Assembly: GCA_017506865.1 (NCBI GenBank)
Contig: JAFCMP010000540.1
Coordinates: forward strand, 496,001-560,000
DNA length: 64,000 nucleotides
DNA from: Tribonema minus
Lineage: Eukaryota > Sar > Xanthophyceae > Tribonematales > Tribonemataceae
Direction of reading: 5' to 3'
The notes beneath the pieces are model-generated. The model was not told the origin of the DNA, ran no database searches, and saw only the letters and a list, made by a program, of their open reading frames with translations. This document shows positions 98-42,352 of this stretch, piece by piece. A program made the translations under genes and the position numbers. Position 1 is the first letter of the stretch, and every line of letters begins with the position of its first letter.

Positions 98-762
98 CCC
101 TCGCAGCCTGTCCCAACTCCGTCGCCTGAAGCCCGATGCTGAGCCTTCGCCTTCGTCGCTGCACACACACGCTCTCGCTGCGCGCGCGGCGCAGGCAACC
201 GAGGGCGGCGTCGCGGGCGCCGCAGCAGTGCTCCGCCTGCGTAGTGTCATCCCTTTACATCCCCTTGTCACCCCTCGCAGCCTGCCCCGGCTTCCTTGCC
301 TGATGCTGATGCTGAACCCTTGCCTCCCCCCCTGCGTGCGGGGCCCGCGGTGCAGGCGACCGAGGGTGGCGTTGCGGGCGCCTCTGAGATGGCGGCAGCG
401 CTCAGCGCGGTGGACGCCGCGCGGCCGCTGAGCCTCAACATGCTATCGCTGCGTGCTGCGCAGGCCACCTGCGTAGCGTCAGTGCTCTGCCTGTGGAGCG
501 CAATCCTTTTTACATCATCTTGCCGTGCCAGCGTCCCCTCGCAGCCTGCCCCGACTCCCGCGCCTGAAGCCCGATGCTAAACCTCCGCCTCCCCCACTGC
601 GTGCACGCTCTCGCTGCGCAGGCGACTGATGGCGGCGTCGCGGGCGCCTCGGAAATGGTGGCAGCGCTCAGCGCGGTGGACGCCGCGCGCGAGCTGGCGC
701 GCAAGCTGGAGCACGGCGCGCAGGTGGAGGGCTTCGGCCAGGCGGCGCTTGCGGCGCTGGAG
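98..762 (+). repeat. Three tandem copies of an exon plus its acceptor region
   Basis: A block beginning CCTCGCAGCCTG and ending in an exon start (ATEGGVAGA or ATDGGVAGASEM) occurs from about 98, 269 and 533. Each copy keeps the acceptor CAG. Only the third copy (exon 622-762) keeps the full exon and its GTGCGT donor. The first two lose similarity after 8 to 30 codons. Confidence 0.8.
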
Positions 763-3700
763 GTGCGTCGGTGGTGTCATACGATCTACTTCAACTTGAA
801 GTTTGAAGAATCTGAGAGCAGGGATGATTACATCGCCCCTGTTTGAAAGGCTTTCTACTTACGGTGACCAGAAGCTGTGCAAAGCTCATGCGCAGACTGA
901 GACCCATTGTATAGGGTTATCATGGCAGCGACGGGAGATGCGAAACCCATCGTTGTGCAAATGGGGGGGCGATAGCACACTAGGCTGCTTATTGCAAATC
1001 AAGGATCTCAAAACTTGCGGGGGCGGACCTTGTCGGCACAGGCTCGCGGTGCAAAGAGGAAGCTTGAGTACAATGTTCAAGTTGTATCATGTGCTGTGTG
1101 GCCGTATCTAGGGTCATGTGATGTACTTCTGTTTCGAACTGGAGAATATTCCTGAAAGTACTTTTTATTAATTCTCGCTCAGGGCGCGAAGAAGCCCAGA
1201 TGAATGGCATCTAACTTGAAGCTTGCTGTACAGAATCTACATGTCGCATGACAGTCTGAAAGTGTCTCAACGACAACCACTCAAACGCCGCCGCCGCCAA
1301 ATGGCATCTCGGGATCCTCCCCTACGTCCTCCCATATGTGCCCCCGCCCCCCTGAAAGTGCTTTTATTTGCCTAACTATAGTGTTTTGTTCTCCTAAACA
1401 GACTCATGTCCAAGGAATCAAAATTAAATATTACCTAGGCTGAGACTATCATAGTGGAAAGATCCAAACATTGAAGTGACCTGACTGTGCATGTTCGCTG
1501 AATCGAAAGTATGATTGCGTTGATCTGCTGTCCAATGTTATGCCCACGCCGCGCATGTCGCACGTCTGTGTGTCTTGCACGCGCATGCGCAGGCGGCGCA
1601 CGCAGCGCAAGCGGTGCTGACGCTGGAGCTGCAGGCTAAGGCGGAGGAGGACACGCGGCTTGCAGCATTGCTCAGCAGGTACATGTACTTTTAATTGTTT
1701 CAAAAATTGCGTGCGGCATCAGCTGGCATCGCTGCACCTTGCAATTTATATGCAATGAATCAATGGTAGCAGCGGCTTGCGGACTGCTCAGCAGGTGCAT
1801 CATTACGCGATGTATCCTTTACATGTGATTGTGAACTTGTTGCATGCGACATCAGCTGGCAGTGCTGCGCCTTGCAATTGATATGCAATGAGTTACATTG
1901 GTAGCAGCGGCCATGTGAGAAGAAAAAATGAAAGATCACTGCTGATGCAAGGCCTTGCTGGCAGCTCGTACAACCCAGAGAGAGCTGCTCTGGTGCTGCA
2001 TTGAGCACACCACGTTGCTCTTTGGTGCTTCTGCGCCGGATCTTGCTGGGCCCGCTTCCTCCTCGGGGCGAAGTGGTATACTTCGAAGTATATGTATCTA
2101 TCGCCAGGGCCAGAAGCAAATGCCATGAGCACACCACAGTGGAAGTATGTGACATGGACGCTGTTGTAGCATATGGCAGTTTCATCCACAGTAGTCAGAA
2201 GACTTCTGTGTGCAAGCACATACCACGTTTCAATGCCCACTGTTGGAGCATATGGCAGTTGCATGCTCATTGCCGTTTGCACGCTTGACGGTTACGGCAG
2301 TTACACTTGCCGGTACACGGAGCACAAAACAATCGCTTCTGGCAGCACACGACTGGCCGTCGGTCCTCTGTTGCATTGGTCACCTTGTCCACCTCTAACG
2401 GTGTGGAGCAACAGGCTAGTGAGCAGCAGCTCTCTTCGTTGCATCAGCGCCATCACTCCCGCGGCAACGCGCCGTGGGCTTCTCCGCCCGCCCCCAATGC
2501 ACTGAGCACTGCAGCCTCCCGCACGCAATCGCAGTGGCGACCCCGCCCAACTACCAGCGCACGTCCAGCAGTAAGAACGCACGGCTACGCTGCATGCACA
2601 ACGGCCCATGTACTCGCACCCATCCCTGACGCCGCACGTGCCAGCTTCAACTTCAACCTCATCGTCGCTTTGCGTCGGTGTCTGCAGACTGGAGGTGCCC
2701 GCGGCTGCGCTGCGCGATCTGGAGGCGGCGGCGGCGAAGGCGGGGCTGCAGCGCTCAGAGGGGGTGGCCGCCGCGCTCGCGGCAGCGCGCAAGCGAGTCG
2801 CGGCAGCTAATAGCAGGTATGCAACGGGCAGGACTTGGATTTCAAGACACTAATGTGCTGGTAGCGACAGCAGCACCAGCCAGCGGTTTCATTCACTCAG
2901 TGCCACTGTGCCACCATGAGACACACAAGTCATGACTTCAGCGTGCAAGCGCGTCGCAGCAGCCAACAGCAGGTAGCGGGCAGAATCTTGAGTTTAAAAC
3001 ACTACTGTAGTGGGCAGAACCTTGAATTTAAAACACAACTGTAGTGGCAAAACCTTGAATTTCAAACACTACTGAAGCAGCAGCGACAGCAGCGCCAGCC
3101 AGCAGTATCATTCCCTCAGCGCCACGGTGCCACCTCACAGACACGCAAGGCATAACAATGGTGCAGAATATTTGTCAGTGCATGAAGGCTGCGGCGAAGT
3201 CGTGGTCACGGCCATGCCAACTACGCCGCCTGCCCCTCACAGTGTTCACTGCGCTCTCGGCTCTGACTAGAAAAGTGCTGGAAGCCATCGGCAAACAGCA
3301 GCCACAATGCCACCATGCACAACGCTGTGTCCCCAATATCAACCCCAAACACCCCCCTTCCTAGCCCTGCCCCCTCCACCCCCCCCTCCTCCTCCTCCTG
3401 CCGCAGCATCACGAGCAAGCCGCCCGCAAACGCCGCCGCCATAGAGGCAGCGCTCGGCGCAGCAGCGGCAGCGGTCGACGCCGCCGCCGCCGCGCTGGCG
3501 GCGGCGCGCGAATTGGCGGCAGCGGCGGCGGCACGCATCCGCGACGGCAACGCAGCGCTGGCAGAGGCGGCGGTGCGGCACGCCGACGCGGTGGCGGCGG
3601 CGCGCGCGGCGGCGGTGGAGGCGGCGCCGCCCGTGGCGACGGCGCTGGCGGAGTATAGCGCGGCGCTGGCGACGGCGCGGCTGGTGATGGGGCAGGCGGC

Positions 3701-6700
3701 GGCGCGTGCGCAGGTGACGGGGGCAGGGCTGGTATGTATGCTTGGCAGCGTTTGAAGCGATGCGTAGGGTTAGGGGTTGAGCGTCACACTAAATTGAGTA
3801 AAGGGTTGGGTTAAGTGGGGTTGATGTTGGGAAACGTTCAGCCTAGTGGTCTTGGCGGTAACGGCAGGTGTTGTGCACGTCATTGCAGGTGCTCTTCCGC
3901 TCTGTGTGGCAAGCTGAGCACGGAAACTGCAAGCAGCGTGCGCTGTGCAAGGTGCCAGACCAAATTTTTACGTCCCGCCCAGCGCATGGTAGCCTCCACT
4001 GTCTTGCAGCGCCTGAGGGGGGTGTTGGGGGGGGGGGGTGGACGGCACGCTCAGGGGCAGCTGCCCGCACAAGACCGGGCATGCTCTTGTGCTACATATG
4101 GCATCAGTGCGGCTGGATGCCGGAATCGCAGGCACCTCTACTTGATCTGCTCACCAGCATCCCCCCGGGGCGTGCGACCCTACTTCAAGTCGAAGCACTC
4201 TCAAACTCAACTACCTTGGCGCTTGACGCTCCTCGCTCCCAGGGGCAAGGCGAGGAGGTGGCATCAGCGCCGTTCCTGTCGTCCGCGCGCGCCGTGCTGC
4301 GCGCCGCCGCCGCCGCCGAGGACGCCGTCGCGGCGGAAGCGCAGCGGCAGCGCTCCGCGCAGGCGGCATTGCTGGCGGAAGCGCGCTCGCGCCTCGCCGC
4401 CGCGCAGCAGATGGAGGCGCTGGCGCAGCACGGCGATGGCGCGGCAGCAGCGGGCGCGCCGGCAGCGGCAGCGGCGGAGGGCGGCGGAGGCAGCAGTAGC
4501 AGCGGCAGCGGCGGCGGCGGGGAACGGAGCGTTGTGGAGAGGGTGGCGGGTGCGCGCGGCGCGCTGCAGGCGGCAGTGGCACGCATGGAGGCGGATGGCA
4601 GCACGGATGTTGGCGACGAGGTGCAGGTGAGCGCGCGGGTGGTGCCAGGGTTAGGTTTGGGGTAGGGCTGCGCAGCGTTTCAGGTGCTAGGATTCAGGGG
4701 TAGTGGGGGGGGTAGGCGAGGGTTAGGGTTGAGACAAGGGTTAATGTGTCAGGCTGTCGTCCAGTTGCGTGCACCAGTTTTGTTGCATCGTGATGATGTG
4801 CCGCGGCGACCAGAGTCCAGGCTTGCTTTCACAGTGCCCCTCTGCAGCTACTGTACCAAGTTGAGTCTCAGCAACCAGATGTTCGATTTTGCACCCCATG
4901 CAGAGTGCTGTTGCAGAGGTGAATGCCGCGGAGGCAGTGCTCATGCTGCAACGTCAATTTGCGTCGCAACCACTCAACGTTTATTCTGTGCCACTCCACG
5001 CTCCGCAACACGCTTTGCATCTGGACAACTCGATATTCGTTGTGCGCTTACTGCGGAGCGCTGTGCAGAGCACGGTGAACTTCGTAGTGCTCTACGCTCC
5101 GCGCAACACTAGTGAGCATTACTACAACTCAACGTCTCTTCTGTGCCGCTCCACAGCATCAATCTGCATCTCACCAAGTTCAACTTCAGTACGCGTGCGC
5201 TCGCTCATTGCAGAGCGCCATCGCCGAGGTGGACGCCGCCGTGGCAGCGCTTTACGCTGCGCGACATCAGTTCACATCACAACAACTCGATGTTTCTTCT
5301 GCGCCACTCCACGCCCTGCAACAAGACTTCACGCCTCAACAACCAGTTTGGATCTCACCAGTTTCAACTTCAACATGTGTTCATTCTTTGCTCACTAAAG
5401 AGCGCTATCGCGGAGGTGAATGCCGCTGTGGCAGCGCTCCACGCTGCGCAGAGCGCGCCGCCCGCGCCCGTGGAGGACGCCCAAGACGCCACAGGTCTCA
5501 CGGGTGCAGCTGGCAGTGTGGCAGCTGAACGACCGCCGGCCGGGCAGCCGCAGGTGCGGTGCAGTCACTGGTCCCATCCGCCAGTTATTCGCACTGCCAT
5601 CATGAAAGAGGGTATAATTCATCAGATAGAGGCCAGCGAGAGGCGAGGCCTTTCCTGCTGAATGTCAGAAAACGCTGGCATCTTGACACAGTGCTTGGCC
5701 CTGCCGATTCACTCATTCACTCAGAGTCGCTCTCAGGACCCGTCCAGCCAGATACAACTGCCGGTGCGCTCACAACATTGCGCTCATTTCTTGCGCAACC
5801 ATCTAGAATCTGCTAAAAACAGCATGCACAACGTTGTCGTTTGCTGAGCACTGCCAACTTTATTCTGAAGGCCCATGTGGACAGGCACACGCCTGGCGGC
5901 GGACTTGTGGCAGGCAAAAGATGCTTTCGATTGAGCACTGAGCATGTGTCAGCGCTCAGGCGCAGCAGCAGCAGCAGCCATCGGCGCCCTTCAACAGCGC
6001 CCTACGTGTGTGCCACCTCCAGGCTCGCACGCCTCTCCGCCCCTCGCCACAGCGCGCCCTGCACCTTCCTTGCGCACTCGCTCTCGCTGCCGCTTCGCCT
6101 AGAACCCTAACCCTAATTAAGGCGAGGTCACTGAAATTGCGATGCTTGCACCCGCAGGCGCCGCCGCCAGCGCAAGCGCCGCAGTCGGCCGGCGCATCGG
6201 CTGCTCAGGCGGAGTGGCTGGAGGGGCTGCGCAGCAGGGCTCAGCAGGCACGCGAGGCACAGATGCGATCGCACACCGCACCGGCTAGCGCCGTGGAGGA
6301 TGCTCCTGTTTCACAGGTGAGAGTGTGTTTAGGGGGGGGGGGGGGGGTCCACCTTGCAACCTTGTAGCTTGGTCATATGCAGTTTATGTTGAGCAAGGTT
6401 AGAGAGGGAGAGGGGGCGCAATTGCGATCGCGCGTAGCACCAGTCAGAGCCGTGGAAAATGTTGTTGTGTCACAGGTGAGAGTGGGGGGGGTGGTGCTCT
6501 CCATTAGATGTTGGCCATTCTGTGTCAAGGTTGGAGAGGGAGAGGGGGCGAAGATGGGATTGCGTGTGGCACCGTCCAGTGCCGTGGAGGATGTTGCTGT
6601 GTCACAGGTGAGAGTTATGGGGGGGTTGCCGTCCATGAGACGTTGGCCAGTCTACGTCAAGGTTAGAGAGGGAGAGGGGGGGCGAGGACGCGATTGCGAT

Positions 6701-9700
6701 GCGATGTAGCTGTAGCACAAGCACGCTGCATGTCGCACGTGCACACGCGCCGACGGTGCCCGGCAGTTACAGTTTCCAAACGCTCAGCAGCTCAGGCAGA
6801 GCACACGCCGCCCCATCTGCATCTTGTAGTAGCAGCATGCTTGGTTGCAGTGCACCGTATCACATACTTCTATATCACGTGCTGATGCGCTCTCACTGTG
6901 CACTGCGGGACAGGCAGCCAAGGATGCTGAGCCGCTGATGGAGGAAGATTCCGAGGAAGGTTCCGCGGACTTCGCCGCAGCGGCGGAGGCGCGTGGGCAG
7001 GCGCTGGCAGTGGCCCTGGAGTGGCTTGCCAACCTTCAGGTCAGATATGGCCTCGCATTGTGGCTGCTCACTGGCGCGCTGGGCTGCTATTGTCAAAACT
7101 TCAGAACCTGCTTTCTGTGTTGACATACTTCAATTATGGCGCTCCGGGCCCGCCGTTGCCAAGTTTCGCGGCCTGCTTTTCGTGTGCCGTCGACGTGCTT
7201 GAAGCAGTGCATGTGGCGAGAACTGGCTTAGTTGTTGAGACATGAGGTACTGCAAACATTACACTCTCTTTCTCTGAGTTCCCTGTCCTTGAGATCCCGT
7301 CTAAGCTGGCGTTGACAAGACCCCCCCCCCCCCCCCCTCGCATCCTGAACCAGCGACAGCTCTGATGAGGGCTTGTAGAACGGCACTCACACTGTGACTC
7401 CTCATGCATGGCGCTGCGGACTTCTAGTAAGTTCGGTGCTGCGCCGCTGCAGCCTCCATGCCTGCTGAGGTTTGCAGGTGACTGCAATGCAGCTGCCGCG
7501 CAATTGCTTGTGCCACTTCAACTTCAACGCACAATCGCTGGCACACACACACCCCCTGGGGTGGCAGCCAATGTGCTTGCAGCCTCTGACCGTCGCAACA
7601 CGCATCACCGATATGCACGACCCCCTGCAGGGGGATGTCAACAGCCTCGGCGGCGGGCTGTTGAGCGCTGCTGCAGAAGGCGCTGCCAAGCGTGCCATGC
7701 AGGATGTGGCAGCGGGCGCGCCGACTGCGCAGCAGGCCCTGCAGGACCTGGCTGAGGTGAGCACTGTCACAGATGTGTGTGCATCATGGCTCAACACGAG
7801 CTCCGGGATGTGTGTGCCGTGCGCAGCGCCCCTTGCTGCATTGGTCGGACGCAACAGGCACGGCGGGGGAGGGGGGGGGGAGGGCTATATGCGCCTTTTA
7901 GTTGCACGCTCAAAACTGCCCTTCGCGGCAATCGCCATCAACCCCCCCCCCGTGTGCGGCAATCACCATCACCCCCGCTTCCCCCCAGCCAGCGCATGTA
8001 CGTATCGTTCTGCCAACGCTCCTGTGATAATATATATATAGCGCCGTCTCACAGCGCTCCCCACTTGGCCACACGCAGGCCAGTTTAGAGTTATTTGGAG
8101 CTTAGAAGTTGTGGAAACGGTGCCTGACTCACATATGGCCACATGCGCTCGCCCCTCTGACTGCCCGCATGCGCGCACTCGAACCCTCACCCCACAAAAA
8201 TGTCACGCGCGCGCCCCAGTCGCTGGAGGATGATGCGAGCGCTGACGCGGCGCTCGCGTAAACCCTAACCCTTTACAAAACGTGCTTGCGCAAACAGTTA
8301 CCCTGGCCTACCGCATGCGCTGCAAACGCTGAAGGATGGAGTGAGCACTGCCACGGCGCAAACGCGCATTGCAACAGATATGCCTGCGCGAACTCTAATT
8401 TTACAACACCGCGTGCGCGCAGGCGCTGCAAACGCTGGAGGACGAGGTGAGCGCTGCCGCGGTGCTGGCGGACCGCGTGTCGGACGCCATGGCACGGCTC
8501 GACACAGCAACGAACAGGGCCAGGGACGCGGCTGCGGGGGCGCCAGCGGATGCCGCGTGCAACGCCGCCTTGGACCAGGCCGAGCAGGTGCGCGGTGCAC
8601 GTCATGCTGACAGTCTCTATGTTGCATTTGGACGAGGCTGAGCAGCCGTGTTGGACAAGGCCGAGCAGGTGCGGCGTGCTGTGCGCGCGACGTTGACAGT
8701 GTCTCAGTTGCATGGGGTGGGGCCGAGCATCTGCGTCGGACGGCGTGTGGCGCGCGCGACACTAACGGTCTCGGTTGCATTGCACGGGGCTGAGCAGGGG
8801 CGGTGTAAGCGGCTTGACAGTCTGTCTCTTTTGCATTTAAATGAGGCTGACAGGGAGCGTGTGGTGCGGGCGGCGTTGACGGTTGCCGTCGCGCGCGGCG
8901 CTACAGTTGCCGCACCCTGCGAGTTCTGGGGCTGGCTACTGTCGGAGTGCGGCATGACAGACTCTAGCCGGGCAGGGTTGAGCTGCTTCGCCGTGTCTTG
9001 TGCGGCGTCTGATGATGATCACCAAAGCAGGACCACAGCACTGTTAGACATGCTAATCATGCAGTGTTTACAAAGTGCCGCAAGCGCCGTATTTCATGCG
9101 GCTCATCTCGCTGACGCTCCGCATTTCGCGCCGTGCCGACTCACTTGCATCGTCATCACCCCGCCAGCTGCCACAAAAGGCACAGCCCCCCGCCGTGAGT
9201 CACCACACGCGCACGGACAACGCACTGGCAACCTGCACCAACGATTTCCCCGATGACGATGTGTTCCGCACGCTGCATTCAGCACAGATTTCTCTCAGCC
9301 TCCGTGCCCCTCCCACCGAACCTCAAATTTGCAGTTGCTGGACGCCGCCGCCGCGCGCTGGGACGCGCGCACGACGGCGGCGGCGGAGGCGGCGGTGGCA
9401 GCGGCGGAGGCGCGGCTGCGCGCGGCGCGCCAGGCAGCGCTCAACGCCGCGCAGGAGAAGATGTCGCTCATGCAGGCCGTCGTCGACCTCGTACGCGACC
9501 TGCAGCTCGTGCAGGTGAGCGTTGCTGCCGCTCGTAATGCGCGTGATGCACGCACGAAAGTTTCTGCCGTGTGGACAGCGGCTGCCTCGCGGAGGCAGCA
9601 GGCGACTGCGCTGTGTTGTGCATACAATAGCTGTTGTGGGCTCATGCGCGCTGTGGCAGATTCGGTGGGCAAATGCGGCCTCTTTACGATGCCGACCGCC

Positions 9701-11084: not shown

Positions 11085-11103
11085 CGGCGCGCTTGGCTTT
11101 GGT

Positions 11104-13850: not shown

Positions 13851-14065
13851 ACCTCAAAGAAAAACGAAACTTGAAGTTGTATATTATGTCCTGGACCGCA
13901 TGGGCTGCGCGCTTGAAGTTGAATTTTAAAAAAATGAAACAGGCAGAAAAGCTTTAGACGAAGATCGACACAGGGTGCTTGACCCTTGCAGCGGCATCTG
14001 CCTCTGGTGTTGACATAGCGACAGCGCAGCGATAGTCAACAGATCGACTGCGGGCCATCCTGCCG

Positions 14066-31400: not shown

Positions 31401-34400
31401 CGCAATCAGGGTCAGGGTCAGGGTCAGGCGTTGATACGTCTATGATTACTAGCATTGCGTACCTCGATGCCGCGGCCGTAGCTCGTCCCGCAGTTGGCGA
31501 GCGCGACCCACGGGAACTGTATCCACATCCAGCGATGATAATAGTACGTAGAGCGGCTCGGAAACTCCTCTGCGGATGACGACTGCGCCTGCTGTTCCAT
31601 CGGCGGCGTCGTAGATACGGGCGCCACCGCGGCGGCGGCGGTGGCGGCGTGCGACAGTCCCGCGGCGGCGGCGGCGGCGGCGGTGGCGTGCTTGTCGTCC
31701 TCCCTCGCCGCGGCGAGCACGGGCCTGTGGGTGCTCGCAGTGCACGCGTGAGGCGGACGGTGGGGGTGTTGGGGGGATGAGTTGTGTAACAACGCTCAGC
31801 AAGCACAGGCGCCTCCGACCACGGTGTGAGGCTAGGCAGTTATCGCTCATACCCCCTGATACATGGGTGTGGGGAATGAGCCGTGAGAGCAATGTGCTGC
31901 GTTTGGGCGCAAGGGGAGCAGCGGAACTTAGGGTGGAACTTCACATGACCTCACGCTTACAGTGTACGTGGTGTAGCATAACAGTGTGGCGTGCTTGTCG
32001 TCCTCCCTTGCCGCGGCGAGAACGGGCCTGCGGGTGCGTGTGTGAATCGGCGCGGTACGGTGGCTTGTGATCACTGGCGGTGCGACTGCATGCCTTCTGA
32101 TGATGACGCATCGATAACGTAACTGTAACAAACGCCGAAGAGCAGCGTGAGCTCATAGCGGCGGCGGCGGCGGGGGGTGTTGGGGGTGTGAGGTGTGAGG
32201 GACGGGCCGGTGCGCCTGGCCCTAACTGCAACCCTGATCCTGATCTTGATCCTGACCCTGACTCTGAGTTCAACCCCTTGAAGAACCTAACTTTGACCTA
32301 GCTGCAGGGGGGGCTGACGTGCGCACGAGGCGAAAGCGCGCATCACGTGCTACCTAGAACCCTGGGGCGAGGCCATGAACATTTGCCGCTGCGCTCGTGG
32401 AGCTTACTTGACATGCTTCAAAATTGCATACTTCAGGGAGCCCTGTTGCCACGTGTGCAGCCGTGTTGCTGTTGCCTCAAAGTGCAGCGCTGCAAAGAGT
32501 CAACTTCTGCAGTGCGTGCTGCATGCTGTGGTGGTACACGGCACTGGTCACCTACACTCTGTGCATGTACCATATCCATTGTGTGCACCTATGCACACAA
32601 CATCCAAGCTGCCCATCTTACTTGAAATGCACACATGTGCATACACGTGTACTGCCCCTCATCACAGACAGAAGCCTCACGCCGAGCGCCCCCCCCCCCC
32701 CCCCCCCCATTACAGGACCAATACCTAAATTCCCGTGCATCGATATAACCCCCCCTATACCTGTGCAGAACGCTGCGGCCCTCCTCGTCGACGGACAGGA
32801 ACTCAACGCCGAGCGACGCCAGGTCTTCGTTGGGGATGCGTGGGTGTATGAAGGGGGGCACATCGGCGGCCTCCTCGTGCCCCAGCGTCGCAAACTCCAG
32901 CAGGAAGTCGGCAATCTGTGGCAGCATGGCATCGGTCAACGTTCAGCAAAGTGGTTACAATTGGGATTGTTGCTCCGGCGTTGCATGTAGCGATTATGCA
33001 AAAAAAGAGACCAGATGCATGACCCGAAAACAATGTTGGTGGTCTCATGATAACGAAGTTACGAAGAATTCAGATAGTGCTCCACCGTCGCAAACTCCAG
33101 CACGAAGTCGGCGATCTGCAGGGGCACGTTATGTAACAACTTGTCAAGATAACATACTTCGAAGTTCTTGAAAACGTACATAGAAACAAATCAAAATATC
33201 GTAGAGCTCTAGACAGTTGCGCAAAAGGAAATCAACTCGTAGTTAGCTCTTGTCATGTATATGTGCATGGTGTCAGGCGGCATTAAGTTTTCAATGGTAT
33301 CACCAGCAGCAAAGTCATCACGTACGGGTTCTGGCTCCAACATTGAGGCAGGCATGCAAAACAGGGACCAGATGCATGACGCAACAACTCTGTCGGCTCT
33401 CCCGCGGTGACAGAAAGCAAGAAAAGTTCACAAAACTCTCATGTGCCCCAGCGTCGGCAGAATCCTGCAGGAATTTGGTGATCTGCAGTGTGGCGGATTT
33501 CAAATATTTTAACAGTGCTGAATTTGTTGCTGTCAGACCTGATTGCAGGCGTGCGCAATATTATGCCTGCAACAAATTCTTCGTGTGCAAAAATTGTTCC
33601 TCAACACCTTTCCCGGTGCTCATGAGTACATTACTTTCAACAAAAAAAAAGCAACAAAGTTTTTTTTTCAATGAACAAATCAACCGACTCCAATGATGAT
33701 GCTGAGCACTGGTGTGGAGGTTTTGCACGTGCGTACAATCACTGGCACAGGTAGTGACGTGTGCAATTTCCTGCACGGGCAGTGGCGAGCCGGAGGCTTG
33801 AGAGGCGTGTATCATGCTGCGGTGTGGCGGGAGAAGGAGCGCTGGGGACTGACCTAACCCTAACCTTAACCCTAACCCTGACTCTAACACGCTCAAGCAC
33901 GTGATCACATCGCGCTGCGTGCTGCAAGTTACCGTGGAAGTCAACAACTGTAAGTTCAACTATAATGTGCCATGCCGGCGCGCTGCGCGCCCTTACGAAT
34001 CGCGCGCTGCATGCTTCAACTTGCTGTGCCGTTGAGCAACTGTAACTTCAACCATGGCGAGCCATGCCGGCGCGCTGCGCGCCTCTAAGACGATGACGCC
34101 AACGCACGCGGTCGGACGTGTGCGCGTCTCGCTGGGTGAGCGTCTTCACCTACGTGTTCAACTGTGACGCGCCAGCGCCGCACCTTCATGATGACGGCGC
34201 CGACGCGCGCGTCAGACGGGTGCGCGCGCTCCTTGTACTCGTCGAGTGCGCGGCTGTACTCCTCCACGAGGTCGTAGCTAGGGCGCGGCGGCACGGACCA
34301 CTCCGCAGCACCCGCCTCTGCATCCACGCCGCCGCTGCCGCCGCGGCGCCGCGCGCCGCCGCCGCCGCCGCCGCCCTCGCCGCGCGTGAGGCTCGCCCTG

Positions 34401-37400
34401 TGGGGGAGGAGTTGACGCGTGAGTTTGGCGCCGTGAGCGCTGCGTCGGTGGGTTGTGGGTATGCGAGTTTCAGCTTGAAGTTGGTACTTCAACTATGATG
34501 CGCAACGTGAGACGCCGTCGCCGCCGCCCTCCACGCGCGTCAGGCCCGCCCTGCAGGGAGGGGTTGACGTTGTTAGTTTGGCGCCCCGCGCGCTGCGGTG
34601 GGTTGTGGGCATCCGAGTTTAAACTTCAAACTGGTGCTTCGACTAGGATGTGCCACTGCGGCAGCCCTTGCTTGCCGCATGGCCACGCTCACGCTGGAAG
34701 GTCGAAATTGCGAGAGAGTTCTATGTGCTGACCCTAATGACCCTAATCTTGCCCCTACGGCGCAACGGCGCAAAGGACGCCTTTTCTTTGACGCCGTCAC
34801 GCCCTCACATTGCGCGCCCACCACTGAGCTGCGCATGCACGCAGTTCAGGTTTTAGCGCCTCGAGTGTGGAGAGGAGGGCGCATGTGAGCGCCTGTCGAC
34901 GGCCGCGGTAGGACCCGCAGGTGTCAGCTGTTGCGTCGAGTGGTCTGTGTCCGCGCATGCCTACCCCTGAAACGTAATTGTAGCCCTACATTTAACCCTT
35001 ACCCTAACCTTACCCTAACCCGAAATGCTAACCCTAATCATAACCTTGCCCCTAATCCTACCCCGCTGTCCACATCGCAAACTGAGAGCCGTTGCGCGCG
35101 CGCGGTGCACTCATGCAGAGTTACGAAACTGCTGTTCATGCTACTGCGTCCACAGATGTGTGTGGACGAGGTCCACGAGGCTCATTGCCAGAAAAGCACG
35201 AGCTGAGCTGCTTGGCAATCAGAAGCTACTACTCGATAAATAGGGACCTGGCGCATGCCGAGCAGCAGCAGCACACAGTGTTGCGCTTGCCACGACAGGA
35301 GCAGGCATATGCAATAGTACGTGCAGGGTCTGCAGAGAGCTTTGGGTAAACAGCAGTGGAGTGTGGGCTGCAGAACATCAGGCAATAAACTGCAGCATCG
35401 GCAGGCCACGCAAGAGACACTGCGCGCTCATAACCCTAAACCTAACGCTGCCCTTAACTCTAAAAGCTGAGGTACTGCCCCCACTTCTGCTGCGTCCACC
35501 AGAGGTTGAAGATAGAGACGTCACGTCGGTCGATGACGCTTAAAATCCTCAACCCGATTCCTAGCTGGGCTCTAACCCCCTGATTTACGCATGCGTAGCA
35601 GCTGTGCAGGTGGTGTGCACTCATCAGAAGCTGAGGAGCTGCGCCTTGTGCATGCGCCAGAAATCGCCTAAGGCCCTAAACCGTAAGACTGATCCCTTCC
35701 CTGCCCTAACCCCCTGGTTTACGCATGCTGAGCCGCTGTGCGGGCGGTGTGCACTCACCAGAAGCTGAGGAACTGCCCCTTGTGCTGCGGTGTCCACCAC
35801 AGATCGAACATGGAGATGTCGATGAGGCTGTTCTTCAGCTTGGGCCACGCCCCCGCCACCTCCAGGTGGTACGGCAGGCAGCTGACGCGGCGGTCGCTGG
35901 CGGGCAGCCGCGCAAAGTACCGCGCCTGTCACATGTATGTACGCACAGCACCAGCATTACAAGTAGGGTTAGGGTTGGGATGAGGTTAAAATCAGGAATG
36001 GAGTTAGACTTGGGGTGAGCGTCAGGGTCAGGCCACATGCCCGCCACCTGCAGGTGGTACGGCAGGCAGCTGACGCGGCGGTTGCTGGCGGGCAGTCGCG
36101 CAAAGTACTGCGCCTGTCACATGTATGTAGGTACGGCACCAAGGTTAACATTAGGGTTAGGGTTAAAGTTAGGGTTAGAATGAGGGTGAGGGGCAGGCCA
36201 CGCCCCTATCACCTCCAGGTGGTACGGCAGGCAACTGACGCGGCGATCGCTGGCGGGCAGGCGCGCAAAGTACCACGCCTGTCACGTGTACGTAGGTATG
36301 GCACCAGCGTTACAAGGACGGTTGAGATTAGATTTAGAGTTGACATTAGGGTTAGGATAAGGGTTAGGATTAGGGTCAGGCCACATGTCCGCCACCTCCA
36401 GACGGTAAGACAGGCAGCTGATGCAATGGTACTGGCAGGCAGCGGACGCATCTAATTGTGGCAGGCGGTCGCCTTAGTTACCGTGCCTGCGTGTACTACC
36501 AGTCGCCGTAATCACCGCGCTTGCGCGTACTACCAGTAGGTATGGGTACGTGACAGAGTCAGGGGCGTCAGAATCACCTTCAGTTGCAAAGGTCCGTGGT
36601 TGCGAAATTTGACACGTCTGGTCTTGTTGCCTTATGGTGGCGCGGCAAGCACGCGGGCGTAGGTATGGCATGCAACATCCAGGCGCGTCACCAACATCAA
36701 TGGGCCTCTTTGGCGAGGTACAAGTGCCAGGGACTGTGTTTGCCATTTCATGTCTGTTTGCCTGATGATCGGTAAGTGATGCGTGGCATGCTCGCGATGC
36801 ACTTTCTCACTGCCTGAGCGTGCAGGTGTTGAGGATATGCCAGGTACTAAATACAACCAAATACTCCAAATACGCACGTTCCCCTAAGCAGCCTGTGCGC
36901 CCCACCGCTCAGATGCGAGCACTTACATACTGTAGCGCGAAGCCGCAAACAATGATCTACACTACACCTCCATCTGACGACAAACTAGGTACCTCGCGAT
37001 AGTGTCACAGCAAGCGCGCCGGTGCACAAAGGTACCGCGACCGCTCGCGCGCCTGCGCCCAAAAACCATGCCAAGGGGTGACCTCAAGCTTCAACATGAA
37101 GTTAGGGGCGCAAAATGCCTAGCGCTACGCCTTAATGGTGCCACAGGCCAGGTAGCGATGGCATCACAGGGCACACACACCGATGCTCCGGCTAGCGCGC
37201 CTGCACCCCATCATGACCAGGGCCCACCTTATCTTCAACATGAAGTTGGAGCATCACCACGACTAGCGAGGCAGCTCACCATCTGCGTGTGCAGGTGCAC
37301 GTGCTGCTCCGGCGTGCGTATGCACTTGGAGTACACGACGCGCCGGAACTCAAAGTTCAACATGAATTTGGGGCATCACAACGACCCCAGCGAGGCGGCT

Positions 37401-39331
37401 CACCATCTGCGTGTGCAGGTGCACGTGCTGCTCCGGCGTGCGTATGCACTTGGAGTACACGACGCGCCGGAACTCAAACTTCAATATGATTTTGGGCCAT
37501 CACAACGACCCCAGAGAGGCAGCTCACCATTTGCGTGTGCAGGTGCACATGCTGCTCGGGGGTGCGGATGTACTTGGAATAGACGACGCGCCGGAACTCG
37601 TCGTGGCTGAAGGAGCGGCGTCCGCGCACGACCATGGTGTTGACGCGCAGCAGCAGGCGCAGCGTAGCGCGCTGGTTCTCGCGCAGCTCGTAGCCGAGGA
37701 CCATCTCCGCGGCGCCCCACACCTGCCGAGCACGGGGGTATTAAGGGGGGGCATAACAGAAAATTAAAATTAATGTTCCAGAATCTAGCTGATTCTTCTG
37801 TTCCTTCTATATATATATATATATATTGAATATTAACATCATGCACATCATCGCGCGCTGGTTCTCGCGCAGCTCACAACAGAGGACCATCTCCGGGGCC
37901 CCCACACCTGCCGAGCACGGGGGTATTGGAGGGGGGAACAACAGTGAAATAAATTCCAGAATGTAGCTAATTGTTTTTTCCTTTCATTAATTTACAATAT
38001 TACATGATAAAAGCAGGTGCAGCGTCGCACTGTGGTTCTCGCGCAGCTCGTAGCCGAAGACCATCTGTTGCGGCTCCCGATACCTGCCGAGCAGGGGGTG
38101 TTTGGGGGGGGGCTGTCAAGGTTTTGGTTAGCAGGGGGTGTTGTGGGGGGCGGGGGGGGCAGGGGGGGGGGGGGCTGTCAGTTTTGGTGACTGGTGGAAA
38201 GTGGGTGGTGCGGCGGCAGTTGGACGGTGCTGATGCATCAGATGTGTGCTTGACACGTGGTGTTGGTGCATGAAGCAGCCTGGTTCACTAAATGAATTAC
38301 GGCGCTTGTCGGTCTCGGTTCTCAAGCAGGCAGTAGCAGAGGCTCACCCTTGCTGCTCCCCAGATGTGCCTATCGATCTGGAATCGCGCAGCTGCTGTCA
38401 CAGCTGAAGCCTCAACGCGTTATCTTCATCACATAAAATGTCCAATACTTTGAGCAAGTATGGTATATGATGGCGCGAGCTGCATCAGCGGCGAAGAATC
38501 GTGTGGCAGTGGCTTTGGTTCAAAGTAGTCCATAGAGCGATAAGCTGAGCCATATCTGCCATTCACAGTCTGCACAATGCAGTCCATGTCACAGTTTAAG
38601 TACACTTGGGGCATCAGGTGTGTCCTGGTCGGACTTTGATTTACTTGTTAGGGTTAGGGCCAGGACTGCAGCAGCGCTCACCTGCTCAGGATTGCAGCGG
38701 CGATGATTACAGCTGATTTTTACCGTCCCCACTGCGCCACTAGCGTACAGCATGCCAAGTACTGCTCCCGTGACCTAGGGTCAGCAGCAATACTCGCGTT
38801 ATCATCGGAGAGTCGATTACTCCGCACCTCCGGTCAGGGTTTGGTAACTATGGTTGAGACCAGCAGCAGCGCTCAAGTCCTCATAAGACAGCCCGTGACG
38901 GCTGGCGTACATCACGCCGAGTACTGCCCCCGCCATCTAGGGTTAGGGATTGCAGTAGTGTGCTCCCCTCTTAATTGTCGCGGCTAACGTACACCATGCT
39001 GAGTACTGCGCTCACAACCTTCACCTAGGGCTAGGGTTAGTATCAGCAGCAGCGCTCACACCTCGTCATCGAACAGCCCGTCGCGGCCGGCGTACATCGC
39101 GCTCAGCACCGCTTCCATGACCTAGGATTAGGGTTAGCAACAGCAGCAGCGCTCACCTCCTCATCGAACAGCCTGTTGCGGCTGACGTACAGCACCCTCA
39201 GGAACGCTCCAATGACTTAGAGCTACGGTTAGCAGCAGCAGCTGCAGCAGCGCTCACCTCTTCATCGGACCACCGATCGCGGCTGACGTACATCACGCTC
39301 AGCACTACTCCCATGACCTAGGACTAGGGTT

Positions 39332-39387
<56 letters not shown>

Positions 39388-42352
39388 CGCTCACCTCCTC
39401 ATCGGACAGCCCGTCGCGGCTGGCGTACAGCACACTCAGCACCGCGCCCGCCACCTTAGGCCCCTCGCCGTCATCCCCCGCCAGCGTCGCGCACATATCC
39501 AGCAGCTTGGACGTCAGCGCCATGGAGTCGGATGTCGCCAGGAAAGCATCTAGCAGAGCCTCAGTTGCGCGCGCCGCCGCCAGCGCCGCTGCTGCGCGCA
39601 AGCGGCGATAGGTACGGTGTGAGGTGCTGAGAGAGCATCGTGTGGGCAGGGCAGTGAGTGCGCTGCGCAGCGTGAGCGTAGTGGTTGTCGGCGGCAGCGC
39701 TGACAGCAGCGCCATGGAGCCGACTGTTGCCTGGGACACATGCACTGTGTAAGCAATGCCACGTGCCGGTGCTGCCGTTGCCGCCGCTGTGCATACAGCG
39801 TAGGCAATGCGACAGTCTCAAATGTTGAGTGGCATGTCATGCAGACAGTACAGCGAGTGGGCTGCGCAGCTTGAGTGCCCTTTGTATCGGCAGCAGCGCT
39901 CGACACCAGCTAAGTGCAGCCAAGGGGATTCCGCCAGGAGCCACTAGAACAAGTGCTGTTGCAGCGTGTTGCACACATAACTACCGTGGTGCTATGTGCA
40001 GACAGTGCTGGCTCATCGTTCACCATGCCAACAGCGCGGGCCCTGCGCCCGCAACCTACGAAGCATGGTAGAGGTCGACGCAACCGCTGCCGCAATCGCA
40101 GCCACCTCCCCACGCGCCGACACCACAGCAGCAGCGCCGACGGCGCCGACGCCGCGCATGTTGAGGCGCAGTGCGTACCGGCGTAATACAGCATATATAG
40201 CACGCAAGGACGTTCTTTGCAAATGCTGTAGCCACACAATGCACTAATGCTGCAACCACACAATGCCCGACCAGTAGTATCCATCACGACGTGATTACGT
40301 ACGACTCACCGCCGTCTGGCGCATCAGTGTCCGCCGCCGCTGCCGCCGCGAGGGCGCTCGCGCCGGCGCCCGTGTGCATGTCGAGGCGCAGCGCATACAG
40401 CAGTGTGCGCAGGAACATGGGCTTGTTGCGCATCGGCAGCGCGACGATGCGCTGCCGCTGCGCCGCCGTCAGCACGGGGCCCCGCGGCGGCAGGTCGGAG
40501 AAAGCCGTTATGATGGCGTGCTGCGCCGCCTCCGGCAGCGGCTCCACTGCCAGCATCGGGCAGCCGCGCCGCCGCAGCTCCGTGTACGTGCGGTGCTCGC
40601 GCAGCGCGCCGCCGCCGCCGCCGCCGCCGCTGCCGCCGGTGCAGAGTGCGCCGCCGCCGCCGCCGAGCGCACTGCCGCCGCCGCCGCTGGCGTTTGTGCA
40701 GACCTGCGCGTGCACACGGTGCGGAAAAAAATAATGTGTGTTTGTAGTGGCCCTCACCCATGCTTCTTCCAGAGCGCGATCAGAGTCGCAAAACACACGT
40801 GCATGTGCTGTGGCCCAACCCCAGCTCTGGCTAGGGTGAGAACTACAGCAGCCATGACCCCGGTTGTGGTACTGATTGCGGTCACGCCTTTACGTGGTAG
40901 TCTCGCTGTGGGCCCTTGGCCAGTGCGGTACGCTTCAACAAAATGAGACACGAAAGCCTTTTCGGCTTCGCCCCGGCGTGCACAAGCCGCGACGGCGGCA
41001 GTGCATAACACCGGCTCCCACCAAACCAGTGTGAAGGTCACGCAGTACCCATCATTGCCACGCTTGAACCCTGTGCAGCATTCTCCATCGTTGCGCCGCT
41101 TAAACCTCGCGCACGTACGCGCTATAATTCTCGCGCGCACCTGCAGCGCCTCGTGCTGCACCGTGCTGACGATGAAGCGCACGCCCGGCGGCAGCTCCAT
41201 GGGCAGCCAGTGCAGCGCGCCCGCGGGCATGTTGGCGCCGCGCAGCGCAAAGACGCCGTCGATGAGCACGATGATGCGCGTCGGCAGGTGACGCTTTGCC
41301 GCGGCCGCGAGGAAGCGGTTCAGCGACCAGATGAGGCGCTCCTCGGAGGTTGGGACCTGGGGGGGAAAAGGGGGGGGGGGGGGGGAGGGGGTGCTCAGGC
41401 GGTGGCAGCGGCTGCGGCTGTCGTTGGTGAGCAGGCCGCAGTGGACTGCGGTGATGTCAATGAATGTTGAGCGCTGGCCTTTCGGGATGGTGTATTGTAA
41501 GCATGAAGTGAAACGCGAAGGGGATTGCACGCTGTTGCGATGCGGCGATAATTGCTGTGCAACACGCGTTGCCCGTAGGCGCGATGGCGCCATGCATCGG
41601 CTCAGAATTCATCGTGCGGCGCGTGAGACGTGCGAGCAGCAGCATGCCACAAGTTGCATGCATATAGAGACTACCGGGCCACCGCAATGCCAGGAATTGC
41701 AGGCGCAAGCCTTGAAGTTCTGCAGCTGGCAGTGCTCTTCAAGTACAGCCGCTCACCTCCATTTCCCTGAGCTGGAAAAACTGTTTCAGAGCTGTCTCCA
41801 GTGAGTGCAGCATGTGGGACAGCCGCTGCGCCGCCGTGGACGCACCGGCAAAGTACTTGAACACGAACTCATCCTTGTGCCTTGCGGCAGCCCTCTGCTT
41901 CTCCCAGTTGCTCAGCAGAGCGTTCTTGCCTATCCCTGTAAGGCGAGAAGCCAGTTGGTCAGCAGCCATTAAATACAGATGACGTAGTACAATTTCAAAA
42001 TGGACAGGCAGGGCATTCACAAGTCGGAAGCTGCTGCTGCCGTTCACCGTGTACACCACGTCTGCCTTAGTCTGGCACTCCCGCTGGACATGTTGGCGTT
42101 GTCCTACCCACCTGGTTCGCCGACAACCACCAAAGGTGGCTTAACGTCCATCTCAATTGTGTCCGCATGCCTGTCGAGCGTGGCAAAGTAGTTGTCGTTG
42201 ATAGGCACGTACACATAATCGCTGCTACGGCTGGCAGCGAAGGCCTCGTGCTCGTCGCAATATGAGGTCTCGCCAGCGCTGCCATCATCGTGAGGCACAG
42301 AGTCCACGGCCACGCCCCCCTCACCAACGCCAGGCATGTTTCCTAGAGGCAT
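22463..42352 (-). CDS. NACHT NTPase / nephrocystin-3-like protein with C-terminal axonemal-type coiled coil, 18 exons
   Basis: Exons in transcription order: 42352-42112, 41935-41757, 41356-41141, 40703-40310, 39591-39395, 37722-37528, 35925-35759, 34397-34184, 32915-32761, 31724-31463, 29979-29842, 28686-28382, 26577-26436, 25622-25467, 25105-24533, 24146-23748, 23359-23183, 22834-22463. Every junction is GT-AG and in phase, giving 1,493 residues. Residues 78-85 (GEPGIGKN) form a Walker A loop split by intron 1. LIDGVFAL (Asp173) is the Walker B region, followed by LPPGVRFIVSTV. Residues about 315-474 resemble the NACHT helical and winged-helix part (FLRTLLYALR, LYASRDGLSDEE). Residues 475-740 match nephrocystin-3-like proteins as I know them (LPYHLEVAG, LLEFATLGHEEAADVP, YYYHRWMWIQFPW). 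From about 865 on it is coiled coil; EAWACIRQATGIADPD near 1150 resembles the ODAD/CCDC151-CCDC114 outer-arm docking family. A ciliary role is inferred. The start Met is uncertain and an N-terminal domain may be missing. I cannot exclude two adjacent genes, but phase favours one. Confidence 0.75.
25860..26435. repeat. Degenerate telomere-like (CCCTAA)-type tracts with copied exon text
   Basis: Irregular CCCTAACCCTGACC-type repeats alternate with three copies of GCGCTCCGATGCGCTCCT (near 26,191, 26,320 and 26,447). The last copy is part of the coding exon 26577-26436, so exon sequence is mixed into the telomere-like array. Confidence 0.75.
26436..27300 (-). repeat. Five tandem copies of an exon as an alternating A-B dimer array
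   Basis: The start of exon 26577-26436 (SEVDALVQRRMQLSRVLSTA) with its acceptor TGCAG|GAG recurs from about 26,577, 26,753, 26,922, 27,098 and 27,267 on the minus strand. Units alternate in two types of about 171 and 175 bp. The 345-bp A-B dimer is nearly identical in both occurrences, so the dimer duplicated recently as a block. Only the most 3' copy keeps the full exon and a GTCAGG donor. The others run into an intron tail containing CATGAACTCATCGCGAATTC. Confidence 0.9.
27430..28330. repeat. Intron with decayed exon-like and tandem repeats
   Basis: GCAGCACGGCTC strings near 27,479, 27,885 and 28,157, together with ACATCCACCTCGCT near 27,529, look like remnants of the neighbouring exon array. 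A separate unit of about 230 bp (GACAGTCCCTNCCCGCA...CTGCCTCTCCCT) is present twice, near 27,990 and 28,220. I do not call the 147-residue ORF at 27,433-27,876 a gene. Confidence 0.55.
29460..29690 (-). repeat. Copies of the 3' edge of exon 29979-29842
   Basis: The exon end (GCTGCTGCAGC...TTCAACTTC...CAGCCGCAGCAG|GT) recurs at about 29,611-29,680 and again, more decayed, at 29,470-29,580 on the minus strand. The 29,611 copy keeps CAG|GTGACT. Confidence 0.65.
30000..30960. repeat. Tandem intron repeats with an ACTTTGAAGTA palindrome
   Basis: A unit of about 110 bp starts TACTTTGAAGTACTT and ends GTTTGATTGNGTGCANGTCCTT. It occurs at 30,017-30,122 and 30,420-30,525, with a weaker copy at about 30,890-30,960 and a related piece at 33,150-33,300. 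A separate pair sharing ATCGTAGAGCTCTAG lies at 30,263 and 33,199. Confidence 0.6.
31975..32045 (-). repeat. Copy of the 5' edge of exon 31724-31463
   Basis: The text CGTGCTTGTCGTCCTCCCT...CGGCGAGNACGGGCCTG is the start of exon 31724-31463 (RPVLAAAREDDKHAT) with its acceptor region, duplicated about 300 bp upstream of it. Confidence 0.75.
33065..33495 (-). repeat. Two copies of the 5' edge of exon 32915-32761
   Basis: The exon start (CAG|ATTGCCGACTTCCTGCTGG) recurs at about 33,118-33,075, encoding IADFVLEFATVEH, and at 33,486-33,440, encoding ITKFLQDSA. Both keep TGCAG acceptors. They diverge after 12 to 17 codons. Confidence 0.8.
33925..34085. repeat. Tandem repeat of about 100 bp
   Basis: Two copies share CAACTGTAANTTCAAC and GCCATGCCGGCGCGCTGCGC, at about 33,950-33,995 and 34,035-34,083. 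They lie just downstream of the donor of exon 34397-34184. Confidence 0.7.
34330..34610 (-). repeat. Duplicated acceptor region of exon 34397-34184
   Basis: CCGCCGCC...CGCGCGTNAGGC...GCCCTG...GGAGGNGTTGACG...AGTTTGGCGCC is present at about 34,355-34,432 (real exon start) and 34,515-34,585 (copy). A further shared string GTGGGTTGTGGG...CGAGTTT follows each. Confidence 0.7.
35080..36470 (-). repeat. Expanded repeats on both sides of exon 35925-35759
   Basis: Copies of the exon 5' edge (acceptor CTGTCAC...GTACTTTGCGCG and CGCGTCAGCTGCCTGCC in minus-strand sense) lie at about 35,850-35,935 (real), 36,030-36,125, 36,205-36,290 and, weaker, 36,375-36,440. The period is about 175 bp with TTAGGG-like spacers. 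Copies of the exon 3' edge (CAGAAGCTGAGGANCTGC with CACTCA donor complement) lie at 35,740-35,800 (real), 35,615-35,660, 35,460-35,500 and, decayed, near 35,100-35,170. Confidence 0.8.
37265..37530 (-). repeat. Tandem copies of the 3' edge of exon 37722-37528
   Basis: The exon end (RRVVYSKYIRTPEQHVHLHTQM) and donor ATG|GTGAGC recur at about 37,350-37,275 and 37,480-37,400. The period is about 125 bp and both carry the same coding sense (CTCCGGCGTGCGTATGCACT). The frame stays open in these copies. Confidence 0.85.
37770..38110 (-). repeat. Tandem copies of the 5' edge of exon 37722-37528
   Basis: GGTTCTCGCGCAGCTC...GAGGACCATCTCC...CACCTGCCGAGCACGGGGGT is present at 37,673-37,740 (real exon start and acceptor), about 37,858-37,925 and about 38,033-38,100. 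A (TA)n tract lies near 37,808-37,827. Confidence 0.8.
38650..39440 (-). repeat. Seven to eight copies of an exon 3' edge and its donor
   Basis: The end of exon 39591-39395 (VLYASRDGLSDEE|GTGAGCGCTG) recurs downstream near 39,255, 39,152, 39,053, 38,957, 38,871, 38,720 and, truncated, 38,680. The period is about 85-150 bp. Between copies stand CTAGGGTTAGGG-like strings and GCAGCAGCAG runs. The copies nearest the exon keep GAGGAG|GTGAGCGCT; the more distant ones are decayed. Confidence 0.85.
39328..39385. repeat. (GCA)n microsatellite
   Basis: About 17-18 GCA units with one CAA interruption lie immediately downstream of the donor of exon 39591-39395. The tract looks like an expansion of the GCTGCTGCT that follows each donor copy. 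Confidence 0.9.

What the first reader, a model, noticed from the sequence alone, without database searches (positions are those of the whole stretch)
98..39440. Exon edges with their splice sites are tandemly amplified in many introns of both long genes
At least ten introns of two unrelated genes on opposite strands contain two to eight degenerate copies of the adjacent exon edge. Each copy includes the acceptor or donor and about 50-150 bp of intron. Only one copy at each site continues into a full exon. This is too regular for chance. It suggests a mutational process acting at exon-intron junctions, or selection for arrays of decoy or alternative splice sites. I do not know this as a described genome feature.
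Basis: partly seen in the sequence, partly recalled or inferred. Interest (0 to 1): 0.78.

Follow-up and report, generated by a model that had tools for sequence, protein, structure and literature searches.

The report
Copied exon edges fill long introns
In this intron-rich genome, short stretches spanning exon-intron borders have been copied head-to-tail into many introns, leaving decoy splice sites that appear to decay harmlessly; the copying hits borders more often than chance, and why is not known.

Summary
In 25 window introns, 19 of 50 exon edges have a significant copy in the adjoining intron; in kinesin and dynein genes elsewhere, where homology fixes exon borders, 28 of 78. Chance predicts about 2 of 128. 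Copies lie only in the intron an edge abuts (26 of 70 tests, 0 of 70 on the exon's other side). They are direct copies, spaced 86-200 bp in 56 of 67 cases.

Decoys look neutral: GT kept in 26/32, AG in 31/35, splice-site strength as in simulated neutral decay, 28 of 31 indels frame-shifting. Selection for decoys is not supported. My best reading: frequent short tandem duplication of intron DNA, where units straddling one junction survive because splicing keeps using the innermost site.

That model alone under-predicts junction involvement (24/36 intron-only clusters within 40 bp, 35% simulated, p=4e-4) and predicts longer exon parts than the observed median of 45 nt. A junction-biased duplication process stays open. 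Six keyword searches (capped lists) showed no description of such arrays.

The parts
622..11084 (+). Gene A: 12 exons (622-762, 1593-1678, 2688-2816, 3407-3731, 4243-4626, 5401-5553, 6158-6316, 6914-7039, 7631-7756, 8423-8587, 9335-9514, 9960-11084), one open frame to TGA
   Evidence: splice-site walk and joined translation; no RNA; homology not searched
98..620 (+). Array of acceptor-edge copies upstream of exon 622-762 (copies start near 195, 356 and 464)
   Evidence: self-hits 88-221/526-648, 226-423/480-689; copy starts read by eye
1771..1794 (+). Short copy of 3' edge of exon 1593-1678, followed by GT
   Evidence: exon edge above null (A2 donor); place read by eye; intron part of the repeat
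2939..2972 (+). Copy of 3' edge of exon 2688-2816, followed by intact GT
4902..4949 (+). Copy of acceptor and 5' edge of exon 5401-5553, AG kept
5165..5262 (+). Copy of acceptor and 5' edge of exon 5401-5553, AG kept
6415..6625 (+). Two copies of 3' edge of exon 6158-6316, each with GT
8206..8359 (+). Two copies of 5' edge of exon 8423-8587, AG lost in both
8645..8741 (+). Copy of 3' edge and donor of exon 8423-8587
22463..41356 (-). Gene B: 16 exons found (41141-41356, 40310-40703, 39395-39591, 37528-37722, 35759-35925, 34184-34397, 32761-32915, 31463-31724, 29842-29979 in one frame; 28382-28589, 26436-26577, 25467-25622, 24533-25105, 23748-24146, 23183-23359, 22463-22834 in one frame to TGA)
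   Evidence: no significant Pfam match in either block, and only glycine-linker matches in PDB for the first block
38861..39305 (-). Five copies of 3' edge of exon 39395-39591; GT kept in the three nearest
37837..38111 (-). Two copies of acceptor and 5' edge of exon 37528-37722, AG kept
37233..37475 (-). Two copies of 3' edge and donor of exon 37528-37722 (about 91% identical, period 124)
36031..36450 (-). Three copies of 5' edge of exon 35759-35925; AG kept in the two whose junction maps
35464..35656 (-). Two copies of 3' edge of exon 35759-35925, GT lost in the one whose junction maps
34513..34617 (-). Copy of acceptor and 5' edge of exon 34184-34397, AG kept
33077..33118 (-). Copy of acceptor and 5' edge of exon 32761-32915; a second, weaker copy at 33443-33485
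31986..32037 (-). Copy of acceptor and 5' edge of exon 31463-31724 (40/42 exon bases identical)
31250..31268 (-). Short copy (19/19 bases) of the 3' edge region of exon 31463-31724
29623..29679 (-). Copy of 3' edge and donor of exon 29842-29979 (89% identical); this intron was not among the 25 counted
   Evidence: read
26661..27272 (-). Four copies of acceptor and 5' edge of exon 26436-26577, all with AG; higher-order 344-bp period
26162..26337 (-). Two copies of 3' edge and donor of exon 26436-26577

Best explanation
Intron DNA in this genome undergoes frequent short tandem duplication (units of roughly 90-200 bp). A duplication inside an exon damages the protein and is lost. One inside an intron is harmless. 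One that straddles a single splice junction is also harmless if splicing keeps using the site nearest the exon, because the extra copy of the exon edge and its splice site then falls inside the intron. Exon definition, the pairing of acceptor and donor across a short exon, would choose that innermost pair and ignore decoys outside it, even strong ones. Exon parts shorter than real exons are not taken for exons; longer ones would be selected against. The leftover copies then decay neutrally. Shown here: the local, head-to-tail, junction-anchored copies; their occurrence in other genes; neutral-like decay; the short exon part. Inferred: exon definition and the purifying filter. Not explained by this model alone: the roughly two-fold excess at junctions. 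A conserved exon acting as a seed that keeps re-pairing with its decoys, or a duplication hotspot at junctions, could supply it.
For: Local tandem copies occur in 18 of 20 loci fetched only because they carry a SINE-like repeat; their mean duplication coverage, about 0.25, is like that of the checked introns (0.22-0.31). Coverage is flat from the junction to 300 bp into introns and falls inside exons from 0.29 (0-25 nt) to 0.02 (75-100 nt) and 0.002 or less beyond 100 nt. Copies lie only in the abutting intron (26/70 own side, 0/70 other side). Decoy splice-site scores equal simulated neutral decay of the real site (donors 8.2 vs 8.6, acceptors 7.4 vs 7.2 bits, with the decay set) and far exceed random GT/AG in introns (-5.4, -1.0). 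Real-decoy differences are about 0.07-0.11 at codon positions 1-2 and 0.18-0.20 at position 3, as expected if the exon is constrained and the decoy is not. Frame-shifting indels 28/31. 90th percentile of exon part 79 nt; smallest of 46 internal exons measured 86 nt. A spliced kinesin aligns end to end with KIF3B through two decoyed introns, and a spliced dynein with DNAH7 through two.
Against: Simulations of this process without a junction bias give a junction share of 0.29-0.39 (observed 71/107 = 0.66), 35% of intron-only clusters within 40 bp of a junction (observed 24/36, Fisher p=4e-4) and exon parts of median 64-70 nt (observed 45). Adding an 80-nt exon-part limit lowers the simulated share to 0.15-0.26, making the excess larger. 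The excess is no weaker among the most similar copies (11 junction, 3 intron-only at 90% identity or more), although junction hits look younger than they are because the exon side is constrained. Decoy-decoy differences are still biased to codon position 3 (0.16/0.14/0.24), which could mean some constraint, though sequential copying from an evolving exon and the high GC3 would also give it. The process is patchy: 20 kb of C90 and its allele, and window 12-24 and 40-64 kb, have almost no duplications.
Confidence: 0.58

Rival explanations
1. Junction hotspot: a mutational process (for example linked to transcription, R-loops or nucleosome placement) preferentially makes tandem duplications of about 90-190 bp near exon-intron junctions, with one end 20-80 nt inside the exon.
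For: Junction excess over random placement even when exons are hidden from the comparison (24/36 clusters within 40 bp vs 13.9 expected, p=1.5e-4; vs 107/304 simulated, p=4e-4); narrow spacing, 56 of 67 between 86 and 200 bp; short exon part; the most similar copies also junction-rich.
Against: Intron-only repeats are 36 of 107 and per-base coverage is flat across introns; in the introns-only comparison coverage is even lowest next to the junction (0.13 at 0-25 bp, 0.21-0.26 beyond 50 bp), partly an edge effect. At tight thresholds the excess is weak (5 bp: 15 vs 10.4, p=0.058; 10 bp: 17 vs 10.9, p=0.018). Selection on where copies may sit could shape the same ends.
Confidence: 0.25
2. Conserved-exon seed (compatible with the best explanation): random duplications initiate everywhere, but those touching an exon stay similar to a constrained template and so keep recombining or being converted, so they persist, amplify and remain detectable longer.
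For: Copies in one array share a similar exon-side boundary (C168, C516, C113). One distant decoy is 45/45 identical to the exon edge while a nearer one is 41/44.
Against: The excess is also seen in the introns-only comparison and at high identity; no direct test of gene conversion was made.
Confidence: 0.4
3. Functional decoy arrays: extra splice sites are kept by selection to slow or regulate splicing or to provide alternative exon ends.
For: Decoy GT/AG are mostly intact (57/67) and strong; third-position bias persists between decoys.
Against: Retention and strength equal neutral decay, indels break frame, spacing ignores the reading frame.
Confidence: 0.07
4. Artefact: wrong exon calls, low-complexity matches or assembly error.
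For: No RNA data; GC-rich, repeat-rich sequence; gene B has no significant Pfam match and gene A was not searched.
Against: 28 of 78 junctions fixed by kinesin/dynein homology behave the same; alignment to solved kinesin and dynein; other-side control 0/70; most copies are 70-90% identical, too diverged for assembly duplicates.
Confidence: 0.02

Closest known systems
Tandem duplication across an intron-exon boundary in potato RdRp (Ma, Lan and Niu 2016, PMC4974935; abstract and Results/Discussion section read)
   Same: A tandem duplication spanning the 3' end of an intron and the 5' end of the next exon, carrying acceptor and polypyrimidine tract with it
   Different: One case, in which the copy became a new spliced intron and exon. 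Here copies are numerous, affect donors and acceptors alike, form arrays and appear to stay intronic and decay
Intron gain by tandem duplication of an AGGT-containing exon segment (Rogers 1989; Hellsten 2011; known here only as described in PMC4974935)
   Same: Local tandem duplication places extra splice signals in a gene
   Different: There the duplicate creates a new intron from exon sequence; here the intron already exists and is lengthened
Introners (PMC9860276, three passages read)
   Same: Recurrent sequence additions tied to splice sites, reported mainly in fast-evolving lineages such as green algae
   Different: Introners are similar between genes and can carry target-site or terminal repeats; each array here matches its own exon edge and not other introns
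Tandem exon duplication giving alternative exons (recalled)
   Same: Extra exon-like sequence beside the original exon
   Different: Here only a short edge, mostly 24-79 nt, with one splice site is copied, with broken frames
Decoy exons and pseudoexons acting in splicing (recalled; PMC8819188 seen only in a search listing)
   Same: Intronic sequences bearing strong splice sites that are not used
   Different: Those are isolated and sometimes functional; these are tandem copies of the adjoining junction with neutral-like decay

Membership tests
Intron gain by tandem duplication | New intron bounded by splice sites from the two copies | tested here: not met
   Copies lie inside introns whose flanking exons join into intact frames or homologous proteins without them; intron age itself was not tested
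Tandem duplication across an intron-exon boundary | Direct head-to-tail copies containing both sides of a junction | tested here: met
   71 of 107 classified repeats span a junction; within 1 kb in the window 50 direct and 1 inverted match
Tandem duplication across an intron-exon boundary | Copy becomes spliced as a new exon or intron | not testable with these tools
   No RNA data; frame-shifting indels and spacings argue against it
Introners | Sequence-similar elements in introns of many unrelated genes | tested here: not met
   Edges exceed every non-cognate intron draw at 47 of 128 junctions; other-side control 0/70
Introners | Target-site duplications or terminal inverted repeats | not tested
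   Unit ends were not searched for them
Alternative tandem exons | Full exon with both splice sites and open frame | tested here: not met
   Exon part median 45 nt, 28/31 indels shift frame
Functional splicing decoys | Splice sites conserved beyond neutral expectation | tested here: not met
   Scores equal simulated neutral decay; no cross-species test possible
Exon-definition splicing | Short exons, long introns, innermost splice-site pair used | tested here: inconclusive
   Median internal exon 166 nt, median intron 718 and 679 bp; decoys were sought only in introns, so their lying outside the used pair is partly by construction; the mechanism itself was not tested

The most novel reading that the evidence does not exclude
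Exon-intron junctions are hotspots of a tandem-duplication process with its own size and placement (units about 90-190 bp, exon end 20-80 nt from the splice site), probably tied to transcription, splicing or nucleosome position, and it has been a main source of intron growth in this genome.
Probability: 0.25. Interest if true: 0.82.

Novelty: new variant of a known kind. Interest (0 to 1): 0.62.

Why it matters
About 27% of the bases in 64 checked introns (13,152 of 47,915 positions) lie in recognisable tandem duplications, so duplication is a visible route by which introns grow here. Up to four intact decoy splice sites, many about as strong as real ones, sit in one intron and seem to be ignored, a natural experiment on how the spliceosome chooses. 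If the junction excess proves mutational, it would tie splicing or chromatin structure to DNA duplication. If it is only survivorship, it gives an in-genome test of exon definition. If the organism is a green alga, that is notable: Volvox and Chlamydomonas have been assigned intron definition because their introns are short (PMC4378016, passages read).

Tried and rejected
Chance or low complexity: rejected by non-cognate-intron nulls, interior-exon controls (4 of 105 above null) and other-side controls. Wrong exon calls: made unlikely by repeating the test on 39 homology-paired introns. Selection for decoys: rejected as the default by the neutral-decay comparison. Coding decoys: rejected by frame-shifting indels and non-triplet spacing. 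Strict junction-only mutation: rejected by flat coverage and intron-only repeats. Plain random duplication plus purifying selection: not sufficient. Telomere-like TTAGGG/CCCTAA motifs are twice as dense in duplicated as in other intron bases (2.05 vs 1.01 per kb); no mechanism inferred. Allele comparison: the searched part of gene B (646 aa) has no second haplotype in the assembly, only a distant match on C83; gene A was not looked for. The allelic pair read (C90/C179, 93.3% identical over 20 kb) has almost no duplications; a dynein contig that may be an allele (C385) could not be fetched. Identity of the organism: not found (literature searches gave no match that I recognised); 'green alga' is my inference from GC-rich codons (GC3 0.84), flagellar genes with many introns and sequence style. 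Six literature searches for such arrays listed nothing that describes them in the titles and abstract starts shown; lists were capped (one search showed 15 of 2,663, one search showed 20 of 36), and only open-licence PMC text is held.

Rows dropped: 58 of 132 kinesin matches and 24 of 54 dynein matches (those lying in fetched loci) were used; two neighbouring pairs were skipped for profile gaps; 7 of 46 paired introns were left out for weak borders. One of those 7 joins (C146+470) is inside the dynein protein, and the alignment there is visibly poor over about 30 residues; the two decoyed joins in that protein align well. The 46 internal exon sizes include exons bounded by some of those 7. In the decoy set, 11 of 78 had no mapped junction, the template held at most 90 exon bases, and decoys were picked by exon-part similarity, which biases exon-versus-intron identity comparisons. 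The simulations use chosen, not fitted, parameters, and repeat hits within one array are not independent. One search stopped on a file-writing error after its first table (quoted above); the rest was rerun.

Full report
What was checked. The window lies at C537:496001-560000 of an unnamed 158-Mb genome of 554 contigs. I rebuilt the two genes: gene A on + (12 exons, one frame from 622 to a TGA at 11084) and gene B on - (9 plus 7 exons, each block in one open frame). Gene A was not searched for relatives. Gene B has no significant Pfam match in either block (best E=0.24), and its first block (646 aa) has only glycine-linker matches in PDB (best E=0.02). Their exon borders therefore rest on frame and splice signals.

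The copies exist. In the window, 50 of the 61 direct self-matches are offset by under 1 kb, and nearly all of these sit at 0-9 kb and 26-40 kb, in the two long genes. Per intron, 28 of 45 repeats span a junction. A 60-bp exon edge finds a better match in its own intron than in any of 60 non-cognate intron draws at 19 of 50 junctions, affecting 14 of 25 introns.

It is not confined to the window. To avoid relying on my gene calls, I took kinesin and dynein exons elsewhere in the genome and paired neighbours whose profile positions join. Of 46 paired introns, 39 passed. There 28 of 78 junctions have a copy, and 43 of 65 repeats span a junction. A spliced kinesin-2-like motor aligns end to end with solved KIF3B through two decoyed introns. 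A spliced axonemal dynein aligns with DNAH7 through two decoyed introns; a third join in it, which I had set aside, aligns poorly. Segments 80-140 bp inside the exon match in only 4 of 105 cases over both sets. Exon edges match the intron they touch in 26 of 70 tests and the intron on the other side of the exon in 0 of 70.

Anatomy. Copies are direct and mostly head-to-tail. Successive spacings run from 86 bp upward, 56 of 67 lying between 86 and 200 bp; 23 of 67 are multiples of three, as chance gives. The exon part is short: 10th to 90th percentile 24-79 nt, median 45. The smallest of 46 internal exons measured is 86 nt. Copies within an array share a similar exon-side boundary, as if one unit had been multiplied. 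One exon (26436-26577) has copies on both sides.

Are decoys selected? In 78 decoys at 38 junctions, GT is kept in 26 of 32 and AG in 31 of 35 with a mapped junction. Splice-site scores match a neutral decay of the real site at the divergence measured in the exon part: donors 8.2 against 8.6 bits, acceptors 7.4 against 7.2. Random GT and AG in introns score -5.4 and -1.0. Differences from the real exon are about twice as common at third positions (window 0.11/0.09/0.20; homology set 0.07/0.08/0.18), as expected for a constrained exon and a free decoy. Between decoys the third-position bias is weaker but present (0.16/0.14/0.24). I think this reflects copying at different times from an evolving exon and GC-rich third positions, but slight constraint is not excluded. 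Of 31 indels in aligned exon parts, 28 shift the frame. The simplest reading is that decoys are neutral: neither purged nor kept.

Where do the duplications fall? With exons included, the fraction of bases in duplications is 0.29 just inside the exon, 0.25-0.31 from the junction to 300 bp into the intron, and 0.22 beyond 400 bp; it falls to 0.02 at 75-100 nt inside exons. With introns alone it is 0.13 next to the junction and 0.21-0.26 beyond 50 bp. So duplication is not confined to junctions. Loci chosen only for a SINE-like repeat show a similar density, and 56 of their 118 repeats touch coding-like sequence. However, simulations of random tandem duplication with purifying selection, exon constraint and the same detection give a junction share of 0.29-0.39 where 0.66 is observed, and 35% of intron-only clusters within 40 bp of a junction where 24 of 36 are observed (p=4e-4). 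A placement test on introns alone agrees at 40 bp (24 vs 13.9 expected, p=1.5e-4) and is weaker at 10 bp (17 vs 10.9, p=0.018) and 5 bp (15 vs 10.4, p=0.058). Simulated exon parts are also longer (median 64-70 nt). The simulation parameters were chosen, not fitted, and hits within arrays are not independent, so the cluster test is the safer one.

Mechanism. I favour frequent short tandem duplication in introns, filtered by splicing. If exons are recognised as units, the innermost acceptor and donor are used, copies outside them are invisible, and copies too short to look like an exon are tolerated. This accounts for the adjacency, the one-sidedness, the neutral decay and the short exon part. 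The junction excess needs something more: a conserved exon that keeps re-pairing with its copies, or a hotspot at junctions. I cannot separate these without alleles, relatives or new mutations.

Comparison with known systems. A single potato gene shows a tandem duplication across an intron-exon boundary that became a new intron (PMC4974935, abstract and one section read). [quoted passage not shown] Volvox and Chlamydomonas introns (averages 491 and 371-373 bp) have been taken as short enough for intron definition (PMC4378016, passages read); the introns measured here are longer (medians 718 and 679 bp). Six keyword searches showed no description of exon-edge arrays in the entries listed; lists were capped and the library holds open-licence papers only.

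Verdict. Its 'mutational process' reading is partly supported, its 'selection for decoys' reading is not. I rate it a new variant of a known kind, with a live possibility of a junction-linked duplication process.

Noticed in passing
window 30243-30419 (-): A dispersed repeat of about 178 bp in an intron of gene B, with 39 near-full-length copies at 92-95% identity among the candidates scored (SINE-like by size and dispersal only).
   Followed up: partly
window 14036-15739 (+) and 49376-50773 (-): Two long open frames with the same C-terminal sequence in opposite orientation about 35 kb apart; shorter frames near 20.1-20.6 kb (+) and 44.2-44.7 kb (-) also resemble each other, suggesting an inverted pair of mobile or duplicated segments.
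   Followed up: no
G000 C90:790001-810000 and C179:178001-198000 (L039-L042): Two collinear contigs 93.3% identical over 20 kb, so the assembly seems to hold separated haplotypes in places; this stretch has almost no tandem duplications.
   Followed up: partly
introns of the 64-intron set: TTAGGG/CCCTAA hexamers are twice as dense in duplicated intron bases (2.05 per kb) as in other intron bases (1.01 per kb).
   Followed up: no
window 26481-27298: A higher-order array: 344-bp units 98% identical made of 174-bp units about 82% identical, implying recent expansion.
   Followed up: no
L073 and several kinesin loci: Duplications are patchy: some genes (for example the C537 dynein locus) show none, others (C113, C511, C516) have many per intron.
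   Followed up: no
window 55852-55955: A nearly pure CAG run of about 35 units (94% matches).
   Followed up: no
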